64,000 nt of DNA, from contig NZ_CP107811.1 of NCBI RefSeq assembly GCF_036346105.1, positions 5,661,501 through 5,725,500 of the forward strand, read 5' to 3'. The position numbers and the translations under genes were made by a program. The notes beneath the pieces are model-generated. The model had not been told where the DNA came from. It searched no databases and worked only from the letters and a program-made list of their open reading frames with translations. How positions within the stretch are numbered: position 1 is the first letter of the stretch; every line of letters starts with the position of its first letter. The DNA comes from Streptomyces sp. NBC_00539 (GTDB lineage Bacteria; Actinomycetota; Actinomycetes; Streptomycetales; Streptomycetaceae). Of this stretch, positions 6,477 through 11,681 are shown piece after piece.

Positions 6477-6591
6477 CGGGGCGAACGGACGTACGGGACA
6501 ACCTCGTTCGGGTGTATCTCAACCGGGGTGAGCCGTGTTGTGGTGTGGGTAGTCTCGCCTTCGTGCCGCAGGGGTGCGAGGGGGAGTCTTC

Positions 6592-9090
6592 ATGTCCATC
6601 AGGCCGCGTTACCGACGGGTTTCCGCATTACAGAGGCAATTCTTCAATCGCGAGGGGTTGCTCGCGGTGTACGACGAGGAGCTACAGGCGATCTCGGAAC
6701 GCCCCAGGGTCCTCAACATCGTGGGTGTCGGAGGCATCGGGAAGTCCCGTCTGTTGCAGGAGTTACGGCTCCGCACGCCCGAACGCCACCGCACGGCCCG
6801 GCTGGACCTCCAACTGCCGACCTTGCGGCAGCAGGAGGACGCCCTGGCCGTGCTCCGCACCGAATACGGTGCCCAGGGAGTGAAGTTCGACCGGTTCGAC
6901 ATCGCCTACGCGGTCCTGTGGCAGCGGGTGCACCCGCAACTGCAGATGGACCGGAAGAACACCCCCTTCGCCGAGGAGAGCGAGGTGCTCTCGAAGATCC
7001 TGGACGATGCCATGGGGTTGCCGGTCTTCGGCACCGCGGCGGGCCTGGTGAGGCTCACCGGCCGGGCGGTCGCCAATCGCCAGCGCAGGCAGCGCATCGA
7101 AGCGGACCCCACGCTGCGGGAACTCGACGGCCTCTCCAATGCGGAACTGGGTCACGCCGTGACCTACCTGTTCGCCGAGGATCTGCGGCAGTCGGCTCGG
7201 GAGCAGCCGTTCGTGCTGTACGTCGACGCTTACGAAGCGATGGTGCCCGCACCGCTCCCGGGCGGCCGCAGCTTCGCCTCGGACGCCTGGCTTCGCGATC
7301 TGCTGGGGCAGTTGCACGGTGGTCTCACCGTGCTGGCGAGCCGCGAGCCGCTCGCATGGGCGGCGTACGACAAGGACTGGGACGCGGTGATCCGCCGGGT
7401 GCGGGTGGAAGGCCTGCCGATGGACGCCCGGCTCGACTTGTTGCGTCAGGCGGGGATCACGGAGCTCCCGAGGCAACGGTCGATCGCCGAGGCCAGCGCC
7501 GGTGTCCCGTTCTACCTCCACCTGGCAGTGGACACACATGTCCAGCATCCCGGGCGTACGGAGGACGCCGGAACGTCTGAGGAGATCGTCCAGCGCTTCC
7601 TGCAGCACGTGGCCCCTGACGAGGTCAGGATTCTCGAACTGCTCAGCGTCGCCAGAACCTTCGACCTCGACGTGTTCCGCACCGTCGGGCGACACTTCGA
7701 CCTGCCCGCCAACTTGCTGACCTGGGAATCCCTCACGGCGTACTCCTTCGCGTACCCGTTGCCCGAAGGCTGGTACCGGCTGCATCAGCTGATGGTCTCC
7801 GCGCTGCAAGGGCACCTGTCGCCCGCGGTGAAACGCGAGGTGCACGCGGTGCTGGCTACACATTGGGAAGGGCTCGCGGACCGTATCGAGCGGGGAGCGG
7901 AAAGGACGGGCGTGGCCCGGTCGTCCCCCCTCAGGGAGGCGGTGTACCACGGGCTGCGCGCCGGCAACCTGTCGCCGGACGAGATTCTCAGGCACGCCGA
8001 CCGCGCCCTCGGGATGAGCAGCCGACAGGCCGTGGACGGAATGGTCAAGGACCTGAGGGACCACCTGGCATCCGCGGACCCTCAGCAGGACCGGTCGTCC
8101 GTGGCAGTCGTCCGTGACGTCGCCGACTGTCTGGAAGCGGAATCCCGGTTGGAGCTGGGGGACACCGGCGCGGCGATCGCGCTGACACCTGTGCGCGAGA
8201 CGCCCGCACGGTCGATGGTCGCGGCCAGGCTGGCGCTCGCCGGGGCCAATGCCCGGCGGATCGCCGGCGAGAGCGGACTGGCCTCCACGATCTTCGAACG
8301 GGTCTGGCAGGACCACGCGGGCGAGGCTCGGACCTCGGCCGGCTTCTGCGTCGCGGACATCCGCATGTGGCAGGGCGACTTCCAAGGGGCCTTCGCCCTC
8401 GCCGAGGAAGTCCACGCCATCTGTTCTCCCCGGGAGCGGGCCGTCCGAGGTGACCTCAAGAGACTGATGCACCTGGGCCATCGGTTCTTGATGGACTTCG
8501 CGAGCGCCGAGGACCTGCTGGAGCAGGCGGAAGAGGACTATCGCGCGGTCGACTCGGTGATCGGTATGGCCAACGTCCGGACGAACCGGGCGGAGCTCCT
8601 CGCCTTCACCGATCCTGAGGCCGCCGTCGCCGAAGCGGGTGCCGCTCTCGACGTGCAGCGGGAGCTCGGCGCGCAGCATGAGATCGGCAAGGTTTACACC
8701 GCCATGGCCCTTGCGCAGATCCGGCTGGGACAACTGGAACGCGCCGAGTTGTCTTTCCGCAACGCCAATGCGGCCCTCGACCGGGCGGGCTACCGCTCTG
8801 GCCGGGCGCGCGCCGACATGTTCCGCTCCTTCCTGCTCCTGCGCCGAGGGGAGCGGGATGCGGCGGGAGCGCTGCTGCGTCACGCGACTCGTGAGTTCGA
8901 GGTGTGCCAGGTCTATCCCTCACTGATCCTCGCCATCCACCGGGCGACCGAGTTGATCGGTTTAGAGGACGCGTACATCACGGCGGCGGCCGACCGGGCG
9001 CGCCCCGCTATCCGACCCCTGGGGGCGGCGCGAGAGCTGGAAGAACGCACGGAGTACGTCCTGTCGATGTTCGTCGAGGTGGACTCATGA
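6592..9090 (+). CDS. STAND-type NTPase with C-terminal TPR-like repeats
   Basis: 832 residues. A short N-terminal lead (FFNREGLL, about 18-25) precedes a P-loop (GVGGIGKS, 45-52). A Walker B-like strand FVLYVDAYE (207-215), a sensor-like SRE (250-252) and a GVP (304-306) in the STAND GxP position follow. A winged-helix-like region comes next. From about 490 to the end, helical repeats rich in Ala, Leu and Arg resemble tetratricopeptides. No DNA-binding, protease or nuclease domain is visible, so the protein looks like an NTP-driven switch acting through partners. Three in-frame TTA codons (residues 13, 58, 791) suggest bldA-dependent translation. I chose the ATG at 6592 over an upstream GTG (6574) because GAGGGGGAG lies just before it. 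Its stop overlaps the next ATG (ATGA). It is probably horizontally acquired, and its function is unknown. Confidence 0.85.
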   Translation: MSIRPRYRRVSALQRQFFNREGLLAVYDEELQAISERPRVLNIVGVGGIGKSRLLQELRLRTPERHRTARLDLQLPTLRQQEDALAVLRTEYGAQGVKFDRFDIAYAVLWQRVHPQLQMDRKNTPFAEESEVLSKILDDAMGLPVFGTAAGLVRLTGRAVANRQRRQRIEADPTLRELDGLSNAELGHAVTYLFAEDLRQSAREQPFVLYVDAYEAMVPAPLPGGRSFASDAWLRDLLGQLHGGLTVLASREPLAWAAYDKDWDAVIRRVRVEGLPMDARLDLLRQAGITELPRQRSIAEASAGVPFYLHLAVDTHVQHPGRTEDAGTSEEIVQRFLQHVAPDEVRILELLSVARTFDLDVFRTVGRHFDLPANLLTWESLTAYSFAYPLPEGWYRLHQLMVSALQGHLSPAVKREVHAVLATHWEGLADRIERGAERTGVARSSPLREAVYHGLRAGNLSPDEILRHADRALGMSSRQAVDGMVKDLRDHLASADPQQDRSSVAVVRDVADCLEAESRLELGDTGAAIALTPVRETPARSMVAARLALAGANARRIAGESGLASTIFERVWQDHAGEARTSAGFCVADIRMWQGDFQGAFALAEEVHAICSPRERAVRGDLKRLMHLGHRFLMDFASAEDLLEQAEEDYRAVDSVIGMANVRTNRAELLAFTDPEAAVAEAGAALDVQRELGAQHEIGKVYTAMALAQIRLGQLERAELSFRNANAALDRAGYRSGRARADMFRSFLLLRRGERDAAGALLRHATREFEVCQVYPSLILAIHRATELIGLEDAYITAAADRARPAIRPLGAARELEERTEYVLSMFVEVDS

Positions 9091-10076
9091 CCTGGTTGGG
9101 CCTTTTCGGGCAGGCACAGAAGGCGGAGGGGGCCGCAGCCGGCTACTACAACCGCAACGTAGGGGTTCGGACTGCCGACGGGAAGGTCAACGTGCGTATT
9201 CCGCTGGCGGCCGCCGACACCATGGATCTGCGGCTGTGGCGTGAGGAAGACGTTCTGACCTGCATCGAACCGTACGTCGTGCGGGTGCCGGAGCTGCGCC
9301 ACGTTTCCGAGGAGCCCCGCTTCCAGGTGCACCACTTCATCGAGGGGCGCGTCCTCGACGTCTTCTCGCCACGGGGTGCAGCGGTTCCCCCGCACGTGAT
9401 CGGTGATGTGGTCGTGCTGTTGGACCAGCTCCGCCGTATCCCGGCGGAGAAGACACCACCACTGCCGGAGCACTGGCCCGCCTCCGGTGACAGCAGCGGA
9501 TTCGCACGCCTGTTGACCCGGCTCACCCGTCAGGTCCACACGACGTACCGCGACGAGTACCGGGAGGTTTTCGCCGGGCTCGGCATCCCGGATGATCCCC
9601 TGGAAGTCGTGGAGACCCGCTGGGACTCCCTCACGCCGCGGCCGTTCTCGGTGCTCCACGCCGACCTCCACCGGAAGAACATGATCGTGGCGGACGGAGC
9701 CACCTGGTTCCTCGACTGGGAGCTCGCCCTGTGGGGTGACCCGTTGTACGAAATTGCCATCCACCTCCACAAGATGGACTATCCGGACGAGCAGCGGACC
9801 GAGGTCCTGAGGTTGTGGCGAGAGACCCTTCCGGAGCGGTCCACCGTCGGTCCGTCCGATGACCTCGACCTGTACGCGGCACACGAGCGGATCAAGTCGG
9901 CGATCGTGGACACCGTCCGCTACTCGAAGCAACTGGCGGGCTCCACCCAGAAGGAGAGGGACTTCCTCATCGAGCGTCTGACGAAGAAGACCAATGCCGC
10001 ACGCCAGGTGTGGGCCTTGCTGCCCGACCTGACACCCCGGCGGGTCGGCTCCCTCCTCGCTCCCTGGAAGAAGTGA
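9087..10076 (+). CDS. APH-fold phosphotransferase, first of a tandem pair
   Basis: 329 residues of the aminoglycoside phosphotransferase/choline kinase fold. The catalytic loop is HADLHRKN (191-198), with base Asp193 and Asn198. The metal-binding element is LDWELALWGDP, with Asp210. The N-lobe is short; its beta3-like strand reads VNVRIP, with Arg where these kinases usually have the ATP-binding Lys, though the alignment there is uncertain. The substrate cannot be read from sequence. This could be a drug kinase, a small-metabolite kinase, or a kinase acting on a protein or nucleic acid partner of the NTPase. Its ATG lies inside the stop of the NTPase gene (ATGA), and the second kinase begins two bases after its own stop, so the three genes form one unit. 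Confidence 0.85.
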   Translation: MTWLGLFGQAQKAEGAAAGYYNRNVGVRTADGKVNVRIPLAAADTMDLRLWREEDVLTCIEPYVVRVPELRHVSEEPRFQVHHFIEGRVLDVFSPRGAAVPPHVIGDVVVLLDQLRRIPAEKTPPLPEHWPASGDSSGFARLLTRLTRQVHTTYRDEYREVFAGLGIPDDPLEVVETRWDSLTPRPFSVLHADLHRKNMIVADGATWFLDWELALWGDPLYEIAIHLHKMDYPDEQRTEVLRLWRETLPERSTVGPSDDLDLYAAHERIKSAIVDTVRYSKQLAGSTQKERDFLIERLTKKTNAARQVWALLPDLTPRRVGSLLAPWKK

Positions 10077-10078
10077 CC

Positions 10079-11080
10079 ATGGACCCGATCGCCCTGTACA
10101 AGGAAGCCTGCGAGCGGGGTGCGGCCCTGTCGGGGCACTACCACCGCAACGTCAGGGTGGAGGCGGACAGCGGACCGGTCGTCGTACGCATCCGCACGGG
10201 CAAGTCCGAGCCCATGGACCTGACCTTGTGGCCGGAGGCGGAGGTGCTGGCGGCGATCGCCCCCTGGGTGCCGTCGGCTCCGCGACTGCTGTACGAGGGC
10301 GCCGATCCCGCGTTCCAGATCCACCGGTTCGTCGCCGGGCGCCGCGTCGACGAGCTGGTGCCCGAGGGCAAGCCGTTGCCCGAGACCGTGGCGAGGGGCA
10401 TCGTGGGCCTTTTCGGCGAGCTGTCCCGGGTGCCTCGGTCCGCGCTGCCCACCACCCCGCCGGACTGGCCGGCGGACGGCGATGCGCGTGGTTTCGCCGA
10501 GCGTCTGCTGGAGCTGGTAGGGGTGATCCGCGGGCGGGCGGACGATCGAGTCGAAGGGCTCTACCGGGCCCTCGGGGTCCCGGCGGACCCCTGTCGGACG
10601 CTGCGCGACAGGGTGCGCGATCTGAGGGGACGCCGCTTCGGGCTCCTGCACGCGGACATCCACCGACAGAACATGATCGTCACCGAGGACGGCGGAATCG
10701 CACTCCTGGACTGGGAGCTCGCTCTGTGGGGTGACCCCGTGTACGAACTGGCCGATCACCTGCACAAGATGGCTTACGGACCGGCCGAGCGGCGCGCGGT
10801 GGCACAGGGGTGGGAGCGGCAGGTTCCCGACGGGTACCGCCAGGGCTGGAGGGCCGATCTCGAGTACTACCTTGCCTACGAGGCGGTGAAGTCCGCTGTG
10901 GTGGACACCGTGCGCTGGGGGCGGCGGATCGCCGGGGAGCAGGATGCCGCGGTCAGGCTGGAGCTCTCGCGGCAGCTCGCGGACAAGCTGGCCGCAGCGG
11001 CCCCGCACTGGGGCGAGCACGCGTCTGCAGTGCTTCACCCCGGCGAGATCGAGGCGGCAGTGTGCCGTCAAGCGGCCTGA
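10079..11080 (+). CDS. APH-fold phosphotransferase, second of a tandem pair
   Basis: 333 residues, clearly paralogous to the gene just upstream. The shared blocks include G-x-Y-x-R-N-V near residue 20, MDL-x-LW, HAD(L/I)HR(K/Q)NMIV, DWELALWGDP, HLHKM and KSA(I/V)VDTVR. Catalytic residues are Asp193, Asn198 and Asp211. The N-lobe again has a V-x-V-R-I strand, with Arg in the likely ATP-Lys position. The ATG at 10079 follows a GGAAGAAG ribosome site in the tail of the previous gene. The C-terminal 30 residues are helical and Ala-rich. The two copies are well diverged, which suggests an old duplication or joint inheritance with separate roles. No terminator is obvious before the LemA-like gene. 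Substrate unknown. Confidence 0.85.
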   Translation: MDPIALYKEACERGAALSGHYHRNVRVEADSGPVVVRIRTGKSEPMDLTLWPEAEVLAAIAPWVPSAPRLLYEGADPAFQIHRFVAGRRVDELVPEGKPLPETVARGIVGLFGELSRVPRSALPTTPPDWPADGDARGFAERLLELVGVIRGRADDRVEGLYRALGVPADPCRTLRDRVRDLRGRRFGLLHADIHRQNMIVTEDGGIALLDWELALWGDPVYELADHLHKMAYGPAERRAVAQGWERQVPDGYRQGWRADLEYYLAYEAVKSAVVDTVRWGRRIAGEQDAAVRLELSRQLADKLAAAAPHWGEHASAVLHPGEIEAAVCRQAA

Positions 11081-11127
11081 GAAGAGCCTCGAGCCGGAGG
11101 CCGGGCATGCGTAGTGTGGCCGGGCGG

Positions 11128-11133
11128 TAGGCT
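11128..11133 (+). promoter_or_regulatory. Possible -10 box giving a leaderless LemA-like mRNA
   Basis: TAGGCT matches TAnnnT and ends eight bases before the GTG at 11142, which has no Shine-Dalgarno. That arrangement is typical of leaderless transcripts in Streptomyces. It would give this core gene its own promoter, independent of the upstream cassette. Confidence 0.45.
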
Positions 11134-11141
11134 CGCGGTCC

Positions 11142-11681
11142 GTGATCGAAACCCTTGTCTGGATCGTCCTCGCGCTCGGTGTCGTCGGCGTGTACCTGAG
11201 CTGGACCGCCGGGCGGCTCGACCGGCTGCATTCGCGGATGGACGCCGCGCGGGCCGCGCTCGACGCGCAGTTGGTCCGGCGGGCCTCCGTGGTGCTGGAG
11301 GTGGCCACCTCCGGGGTGCTCGACCCCGCGTCCTCGCTGGTGCTGTACGAAGCGGCGCACGCGGCGCGGCAGGCCGAGGAGGAGCAGCGCGAGGTGGCCG
11401 AGAGCGAGCTGAGCCAGGCGCTGCGCGCGGTGTTCGCCGACGCGGACCAGGTCGATGCGGTGAAGGCGGCGCCCGGTGGGGTGGCGGCCGCGGAGGAGCT
11501 CGCGGCGGCCGTGCGCCGGGTGCCGATGGCCCGGCGCTTCCACAACGACGCCGTGCGGGCCGCCCGGGCCCTGCGCAGGCACCGCAAGGTGCGCTGGTTC
11601 CGCCTGGCGGGCCACGCCCCCTTCCCGCTCGCCTTCGAGATGGACGACGAGCCGCCCGCGGACCTCGCCGACCGCCCCTGA
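11142..11681 (+). CDS. LemA-like membrane-anchored helical protein
   Basis: 179 residues. An N-terminal hydrophobic helix (about 4-21) is followed by a mainly helical, charged domain. The pattern ARRFHNDAVRAARALR, followed by a hydrophobic PFPLAFEMDD tail, resembles the LemA family, although the usual Tyr-Asn residues are partly lost, so I call it LemA-like only. Function is unknown; LemA proteins are single-pass proteins with a soluble helical bundle. A protein of this type lies between pimA and pdxS in Streptomyces (from memory of gene order), so this gene marks the return from the accessory cassette to core sequence. The GTG start has no clear ribosome site and fits leaderless translation. 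Confidence 0.75.
   Translation: MIETLVWIVLALGVVGVYLSWTAGRLDRLHSRMDAARAALDAQLVRRASVVLEVATSGVLDPASSLVLYEAAHAARQAEEEQREVAESELSQALRAVFADADQVDAVKAAPGGVAAAEELAAAVRRVPMARRFHNDAVRAARALRRHRKVRWFRLAGHAPFPLAFEMDDEPPADLADRP

What the first reader, a model, noticed from the sequence alone, without database searches (positions are those of the whole stretch)
6592..11080. Three-gene cassette: STAND NTPase-TPR with two coupled APH-fold kinases
Seen: an 832-residue P-loop protein with Walker A, a Walker B-like strand and a GxP element plus TPR-like repeats. It is joined by an ATGA overlap to an APH-like kinase, which a two-base gap joins to a second one. STAND proteins are usually sensor-switches with an effector fused at one end; only about 44 residues precede the P-loop here and no effector is visible. 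Inference: the kinases are the separate effectors or modifiers of the switch. This would fit a defence, self-recognition or developmental signalling module. I know of no described system with this layout.
Basis: partly seen in the sequence, partly recalled or inferred. Interest (0 to 1): 0.75.

Follow-up and report, generated by a model that had tools for sequence, protein, structure and literature searches.

The report
Portable STAND switch with kinase outputs
Three adjacent Streptomyces genes form a portable unit in which an NLR-like ATPase switch travels with, and in some related bacteria is fused to, a small-molecule-type kinase, so the kinase is very probably what the switch controls; what it senses and phosphorylates is unknown.

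Summary
In detail: an 832-aa STAND-like NTPase-TPR gene (6592-9090), an ATGA overlap, an APH-fold kinase (9087-10076), a 2-nt gap and a second, paralogous kinase (10079-11080). The inference that the kinases belong functionally to the NTPase is now well supported. In 29 of 29 genomes with a full-length NTPase in one piece, a kinase is directly downstream or fused. In 7 of them (plus one contig-split copy) both are a single open reading frame. Kinase and NTPase distances agree, catalytic residues are kept in 42 of 42 kinases, and all three genes are under purifying selection. The cassette sits at several unrelated places, is missing at this site in 28 of 28 readable relatives, has the poorest codon scores of 58 window genes and is broken in several genomes: a portable accessory module. 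The coupling is not absolute from the kinase side: one Nocardia plasmid kinase inside the same clade has no NTPase. A distant NTPase homologue on a Priestia plasmid is paired with a HEPN-annotated gene. Anti-phage or other conflict function is the leading inference but unproven; defence genes are not convincingly enriched around it. I file it as a new variant of a known kind.

The parts
6592..9090 (+). STAND-like NTPase with winged-helix region and C-terminal TPR-like helical solenoid (832 aa); the presumed sensor and switch
   Evidence: alignment A1 with invariant Walker A (45-52), D212, E215, R251, G304/P306, H398
9087..10076 (+). APH-fold kinase K1 (329 aa); groups with the single kinases that accompany or are fused to the NTPase in other genera
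   Evidence: Pfam APH 1.3e-21; R37, E53, H191, D193, N198, D210 in 42 of 42; tree; model pLDDT 92.5
10079..11080 (+). APH-fold kinase K2 (333 aa), divergent paralogue of K1 (about 40% identical), found only in the 11 genomes of the Streptomyces/Yinghuangia clade
   Evidence: Pfam APH 1.2e-21; all catalytic residues kept; tree; dN/dS 0.27-0.33
9087..9090 (+). ATGA start/stop overlap NTPase-K1; ATGA or GTGA at the same place in 12 of 13 Streptomycetaceae copies (CTGA in L008)
6477..6591 (+). left junction: intergenic DNA between the glycosyltransferase gene and the NTPase
   Evidence: in 28 relatives without the cassette the two flanking genes lie 35-1190 bp apart
11081..11141 (+). right junction before the conserved hypothetical gene 11142-11681

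Best explanation
The locus is one functional unit: a STAND-type NTPase switch (sensor arm: TPR solenoid) whose output arm is an APH-fold kinase, supplied in trans in Streptomyces (K1, plus a diverged second kinase K2) and as a C-terminal domain in part of its relatives. Shown: gene coupling, natural fusion, agreement of distances, intact catalytic residues in both halves, portability and dispensability. Inferred: a ligand bound by the TPR arm opens the ADP-bound NTPase, which assembles and activates or positions the kinase; the kinase then phosphorylates a small molecule (or a related hydroxyl or amine substrate), changing growth or metabolism. I judge it more likely than not (about 0.55) that the purpose is a conflict response, such as anti-phage growth arrest.
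For: Coupling: kinase directly downstream or fused in 29 of 29 genomes with a one-piece full-length NTPase (window, L003-L010, L041, L042, L045, L046, L125-L140); in a 30th, G1053, the NTPase is split between two contig ends and its C-terminal part is fused to a kinase (L141, L142). Fusion: one in-frame open frame of 1152-1254 residues in L125, L127, L129, L130, L131, L137, L140; Pfam order AAA_16-TPR-APH in the 4 of 7 scanned, AAA_16 sub-threshold. 42 kinases from these loci are one side of a branch against 17 comparison kinases, SH-aLRT 100, and all 42 have R37, E53, H191, D193, N198, D210 and Q80, K229, K270. Distance matrices of NTPase and kinase agree: r 0.93 (K1, 11 loci), 0.77 (K2, 11 loci), 0.94 (30 loci); 0 of 2000 permutations as high. 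dN/dS 0.10-0.33. Portability: eight other Streptomycetaceae sites judged from different neighbours, no cassette at this site in 28 of 28 readable relatives, codon scores ranked 1-3 lowest of 58 called genes. Conflict hints: JetA/B/C and GmrSD_N beside L046; a homologue of the NTPase (hhalign 99.4%, E 1.8e-21, 416 columns) paired with a HEPN-annotated gene, with an Mrr endonuclease about 2 kb away, on a Priestia plasmid.
Against: No ligand, substrate or phenotype is known. Kinase without NTPase: a Nocardia plasmid kinase (L222) nests inside the NTPase-linked clade, sister to the fused L140 (0.998), yet no NTPase is annotated beside it. Of the five remnant copies two (L144, L147) show no kinase in the stretch fetched and three (L145, L146, L148) do. 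The PADLOC neighbour test (112 proteins, 22 loci, against 106 from 20 random places) gave 75 against 8 model names at 1e-10, but only 25 of the 75 are shown; these are mostly names hit by one protein each and come from one Jet locus, a protein kinase and a helicase, and the control held a JetA3 hit at 1.5e-180, so I do not read it as enrichment. No copy in viral contigs or phage records. A kinase after the TPR arm is not the usual STAND order. The NTPase part of the model is of low confidence. The agreement of distances is partly shared ancestry, which the permutation test does not remove.
Confidence: 0.66

Rival explanations
1. Regulated small-molecule modification module: the STAND NTPase senses a metabolite or antibiotic and the kinases inactivate or activate it (resistance or secondary-metabolism control), with no immune role.
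For: APH fold; Foldseek's best hits are macrolide and other drug kinases and choline/ethanolamine kinases; the comparison kinases next outside the clade sit with a HAD-type gene (motif at 13 of 14 loci; Pfam HAD, GntR and APH confirmed at one, L054).
Against: Matches are superfamily-level only (10-18% identity in the 50 rows shown) and far below every NCBIfam cut-off; reading the gene calls by eye, no biosynthetic, transport or regulator gene recurs beside the cassette; no DNA-binding domain seen.
Confidence: 0.25
2. Reverse direction: the kinases are upstream regulators that phosphorylate and set the NTPase (as AfsK does for the STAND-like regulator AfsR; recalled), and the NTPase-TPR is the output scaffold.
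For: The NTPase shows no other effector; two kinases of one clade could be antagonistic inputs.
Against: APH/choline-kinase-like family rather than a Ser/Thr protein kinase; a C-terminally fused kinase is an odd input arm; one distant NTPase homologue has a HEPN-annotated partner instead.
Confidence: 0.12
3. Co-located but functionally independent genes kept together by co-transcription and shared transfer.
For: Operons can hold unrelated genes (general knowledge); one clade member lives without the NTPase.
Against: 29 of 29 co-occurrence from the NTPase side, natural fusions, conserved order and overlap.
Confidence: 0.05

Closest known systems
STAND NTPases of NLR type used in bacterial immunity (AVAST/Avs, bNACHT; features recalled)
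   Same: P-loop STAND NTPase followed by a TPR-type C-terminal arm; patchy, portable, dispensable
   Different: No conserved N-terminal effector; output is a separate or C-terminal APH-fold kinase; not recognised by PADLOC models; no anti-phage test
APH-like kinase effectors in VMAP ternary conflict systems (Kaur et al. 2020, PMC7159879; passages seen)
   Same: A catalytically intact APH-superfamily kinase proposed as an effector that might act on low-molecular-weight substrates
   Different: There a rare domain in MoxR-vWA-VMAP systems; here the partner of a STAND NTPase-TPR
Actinobacterial HAD-APH kinase operons (one sentence in PMC7159879; comparison loci L047-L060 here)
   Same: Related kinases with the same catalytic core: E53, D193, N198, D210 in 19 of 19, R37 in 17 of 19 with 2 gaps
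   Different: Partner is a HAD-type gene and often a GntR regulator, no NTPase seen; Q80, K229 and K270 in 0 of 19
Priestia megaterium plasmid NTPase-TPR + HEPN-annotated pair (NZ_CP026738.1)
   Same: Homologous NTPase and winged-helix region over 416 columns, TPR arm, separate partner gene
   Different: Partner annotated HEPN and upstream; in Bacillota; single example found
AfsK/AfsR of Streptomyces (recalled)
   Same: A kinase acting with a STAND-TPR protein
   Different: AfsR carries a DNA-binding domain and AfsK is a Ser/Thr protein kinase

Membership tests
STAND NTPase superfamily | Walker A with GxxGxGK[ST] | tested here: met
   GVGGIGKS, residues 45-52, invariant in 13 of 13 rows
STAND NTPase superfamily | Walker B strand, sensor-like Arg, GxP element and winged-helix region | tested here: met
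   D212/E215, R251, G304/P306, H398 invariant in 13 of 13 rows; motif assignment recalled; this part of the model has low confidence
STAND NTPase superfamily | Curated profile hit above cut-off | tested here: not met
   AAA_16 25.2 bits against cut-off 32.6
STAND NTPase superfamily | C-terminal repeat arm (TPR) | tested here: met
   TPR_12 E 0.006, below Pfam's cut-off; helical solenoid model; Foldseek hits to TPR proteins including 6mfv and 1hz4
NLR-type bacterial defence STAND (AVAST, bNACHT) | N-terminal fused effector | tested here: not met
   44 residues before Walker A; homology starts at the same Met in all 13 rows
NLR-type bacterial defence STAND (AVAST, bNACHT) | Match to a described defence model | tested here: not met
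   PADLOC: none for the NTPase; E 0.019-0.063 for the kinases
NLR-type bacterial defence STAND (AVAST, bNACHT) | Protects against phage | not testable with these tools
   needs a strain test
APH/choline-kinase superfamily | APH fold with HxDxxxxN catalytic loop and following Asp | tested here: met
   PF01636 about 1e-21; H191, D193, N198, D210 in 42 of 42; Foldseek
Known drug, choline, thiamine or sugar kinase | Match above an equivalog cut-off | tested here: not met
   Best NCBIfam GntI 37-40 bits against 357, ThiK 27-32 bits against 299
VMAP / MoxR-vWA ternary conflict system | MoxR, vWA and VMAP components alongside | tested here: inconclusive
   profiles name the window's neighbours as PIP synthase, PIM acyltransferase, glycosyltransferase, PdxS and PdxT; neighbours at other loci were read by eye, not searched with those models

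The most novel reading that the evidence does not exclude
A so far undescribed class of NLR-like bacterial immune module in multicellular actinobacteria, in which a STAND-TPR sensor drives a small-molecule (APH-fold) kinase as its toxic or signalling output, with effector swapping on a common NTPase (kinase in actinobacteria, HEPN-annotated protein in Priestia) and a second, diverged kinase added in Streptomyces.
Probability: 0.4. Interest if true: 0.75.

Novelty: new variant of a known kind. Interest (0 to 1): 0.55.

Why it matters
STAND proteins are the common root of NLR immunity and of many bacterial defence systems, but their outputs in bacteria are mostly nucleases, proteases, TIRs and pore formers (general knowledge). 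A family in which the output is a metabolite-type kinase, fused in one lineage and split and doubled in another, gives a simple, testable system for asking what such kinases phosphorylate. It also ties in the actinobacterial HAD-APH kinase operons, whose substrate I did not find described in the passages read.

Tried and rejected
Defence-island test: PADLOC at 1e-10 on 112 neighbours (up to 3 genes each side, 22 loci) gave 75 model names (25 shown) against 8 for 106 proteins from 20 random places in mostly the same genomes. The shown names are nearly all hit by one protein each (JetA/JetB at L046; PD-T4-6 and C3a189, presumably the protein kinase at L127 13137-15278; BrxHI, a helicase; mad2, mad3, mad8), and the control held JetA3 at 1.5e-180. 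I do not use it as proof of defence. Left out of the neighbour set: the window, L003, L004, L007, L009, L125, L130, L139, L141, L142 and remnants L144-L147 (mostly shared sites or broken copies). Eleven of the 22 loci are from one family (f90), so the test is weak.

Mobile-element test: no NTPase relative in IMG/VR viral contigs by the pattern scan or phage records, and no actinobacterial plasmid copy at 1e-20. The window's flanks are core genes; an integrase-like gene lies beside the remnant in L147.

A Nocardia plasmid kinase without an annotated NTPase nests in it.

Recent duplication of K1 into K2: K2 branches outside the other NTPase-linked kinases, but a K1+K2 clade is not rejected (p-AU 0.214); left open. 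Fusion once or twice: two changes on the tree, one clade not rejected (p 0.412). Two very divergent comparison domains (L049_k2, L050_k2) were left out of the trees; they were.

Substrate by homology: PDB sequence and fold searches gave superfamily-level matches only. The NTPase had no PDB sequence match and its profile only weak hits to other proteins, best E 0.0099. Pfam PTS_IIA and NCBIfam RecX hits to the NTPase were taken as chance.

Literature: seven searches listed no paper that I could see describing this gene pair; the library holds open-licence PMC papers, and I saw passages only of PMC7159879, PMC13092281, PMC12419801 and PMC10907252, other papers as listings.
Full report
What is there. 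The window lies in a 7.5-Mb genome whose closest relatives at this locus are Streptomyces. At 6592-11080 there are three genes on the + strand exactly as described: NTPase 832 aa, kinase K1 329 aa starting in the ATGA of the NTPase stop, kinase K2 333 aa two bases after K1. Profiles name the neighbours as PIP synthase, PIM acyltransferase and a family-4 glycosyltransferase upstream, and an unnamed 179-aa protein, PdxS and PdxT downstream (the label pimA used in scripts is mine). K1 and K2 are about 40% identical and were the only two matches of K1 in the genome.

The NTPase. Pfam gives AAA_16 and TPR below their cut-offs. In 13 aligned rows the Walker A, D212/E215, R251, G304/P306 and H398 are invariant and homology begins at one Met; six of 12 relatives have extra in-frame starts upstream, not pursued. 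The model is good for the C-terminal helical part only; Foldseek lists TPR proteins, among them a solved STAND-TPR protein and MalT domain III. So 'STAND-like NTPase with TPR arm' is a fair description.

The kinases. Both hit APH (PF01636) at about 1e-21. Foldseek on K1 lists macrolide kinases, choline/ethanolamine kinases and similar at 10-18% identity in the 50 rows shown. No NCBIfam equivalog comes near its cut-off. The fold is clear and the substrate is not.

Co-occurrence. A genome-contig scan with K1 found 8 loci, all with NTPase, K1 and K2 in this order. Further searches: K2 in 298 genomes of the family (156 matched, mostly distant kinases; 20 places were fetched, of which 6 hold the NTPase); NTPase profile in 395 genomes of the family (10 matched, 8 full-length including the own genome, one 45-residue remnant, one partial hit to residues 14-202, 32% identical where aligned); in 396 of the phylum (47 matched, only the own genome full-length, the others short weak matches); and in 394 of the class (23 matched; besides G000 and G150, 16 full-length, one split between contigs, 4 remnants). 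Together, with L003, L005 and L008 recognised as G729, G227 and G001 by identical scores or contig lengths, this gives 29 distinct genomes with a one-piece full-length NTPase: the window, L003-L010, L041, L042, L045, L046 and L125-L140. In 29 of 29 a kinase lies directly downstream on the same strand or is fused. G1053 (L141, L142) is a thirtieth, split by contig ends. Eleven genomes of one Streptomyces/Yinghuangia clade have two kinases; the other 18 and G1053 have one. nifH above cut-off was found in 4 of 7 tested genomes of the main non-streptomycete family f90, and in none of 4 others tested, so f90 is probably Frankiaceae (inference).

Fusions. In L125, L127, L129, L130, L131, L137 and L140 NTPase and kinase lie in one open frame of 1152-1254 residues without a stop; L141 shows the same for its C-terminal part. 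The four scanned with Pfam read AAA_16, TPR, APH from N to C, AAA_16 sub-threshold in each. This is the strongest single argument that the kinase works with the NTPase.

Evolution. The 42 kinase domains from these loci (including L148, whose NTPase is a remnant) are one side of a branch against 17 comparison kinases, SH-aLRT 100. All 42 keep R37, E53, H191, D193, N198 and D210. Q80, K229 and K270 are in 42 of 42 and 0 of 19 comparison domains, H228 in 42 of 42 and 5 of 19. This suggests a common substrate type for K1, K2 and the fused kinases. The clade is not exclusive: adding the Nocardia plasmid kinase L222 (40% identical to K1, no NTPase annotated beside it) places it inside, sister to the fused L140 with support 0.998; it keeps Q80, K229 and K270 but not H228. 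K1 groups with the single kinases, K2 branches first, but a K1+K2 clade is not rejected. NTPase and kinase distances agree closely, with shared ancestry contributing. dN/dS against three same-site relatives is 0.10-0.12 (NTPase), 0.15-0.22 (K1) and 0.27-0.33 (K2): all three genes are maintained, K2 most loosely.

Portability and loss. Of 61 Streptomyces genomes searched for the downstream flanking gene, 60 matched and loci of 30 were given. Besides the own one, 28 of 29 show both flanking genes, 35-1190 bp apart and without the NTPase; the 29th lacks the upstream gene on its contig. The remaining matches were not read. L003, L004 and L007 have the cassette at this very site; L005, L006, L008, L009/L010, L041, L042, L045 and L046 have other neighbours. 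The three genes, as called, have the three lowest codon scores of 58 called window genes, many of them housekeeping genes. In genus g281 the site with intact copies in L125 and L127 holds remnants in L145, L146 and L147, judged from shared neighbours. Of five remnant copies, L145, L146 and L148 keep kinase sequence and L144 and L147 do not in the stretch fetched. I saw no pathway gene recurring beside the cassette (read by eye).

The comparison kinases. The more distant relatives at L047-L060 lie in loci with a HAD-type DFDGP motif at 13 of 14, close to the kinase at most of them; Pfam confirmed HAD, GntR and APH at the one locus tested, L054. Kaur et al. [quoted passage not shown] So an APH kinase as a conflict effector has been proposed before, but I saw none with a STAND-TPR partner.

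Conflict or not. For: L046 lies near a GmrSD_N protein and JetA/B/C; a remnant in L145 has a TIR protein with a sub-threshold AAA_16 part next to it; L045 and L140 have helicase genes with only partial defence-model matches; a Priestia megaterium plasmid holds a protein homologous to the NTPase over 416 columns (hhalign probability 99.4, E 1.8e-21) directly after a gene annotated HEPN, with an Mrr endonuclease about 2 kb further and a DUF87 protein. The HEPN label is NCBI's; Pfam and NCBIfam gave nothing at my cut-offs, though an RxxxxH motif is present. Against: the neighbour scan shows no convincing general enrichment; no viral or phage copies were found and no PADLOC match. I hold the switch-plus-kinase unit as well supported and its use in defence as a leading but unproven inference.

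Verdict. A real module, undescribed in the searches made, but not categorically new: a new variant of STAND-type sensor switches, with APH-fold kinases as separate or C-terminal outputs.

Noticed in passing
L049, L050 and other loci among L047-L060: HAD-type gene with APH kinase (and often GntR) recurs in Streptomyces; in several (for example L049, L050) two kinase domains are fused in one frame of 700 or more residues. Substrate unknown.
   Followed up: partly
L046 (2961-15085): NTPase-kinase pair lies between a GmrSD_N protein and a JetA/JetB/JetC set.
   Followed up: partly
L221 (3622-7955), plasmid NZ_CP026738.1 of Priestia megaterium: Distant homologue of the NTPase paired with a gene annotated HEPN, near an Mrr endonuclease and a DUF87 protein.
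   Followed up: partly
L159, L164, L169, L171, L172 (between the glycosyltransferase and the 179-aa gene): The same intergenic spot is 655-1190 bp long in some Streptomyces and in four of these five holds another called gene, so it may be a small insertion hot spot.
   Followed up: no
L222 (6857-7924), Nocardia plasmid NZ_CP109567.1: A kinase of the same clade without an annotated NTPase, between an HTH protein and a terpene synthase.
   Followed up: partly
L132 (17048-17479) / L208 (2514-2945): A half-length kinase remnant about 6.4 kb downstream of an intact NTPase-kinase pair.
   Followed up: partly
L130 (5395-5784), L131 (6398-6787): A similar 129-aa protein lies just upstream of the fused NTPase-kinase gene in two genomes; the L130 one has no Pfam match.
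   Followed up: no
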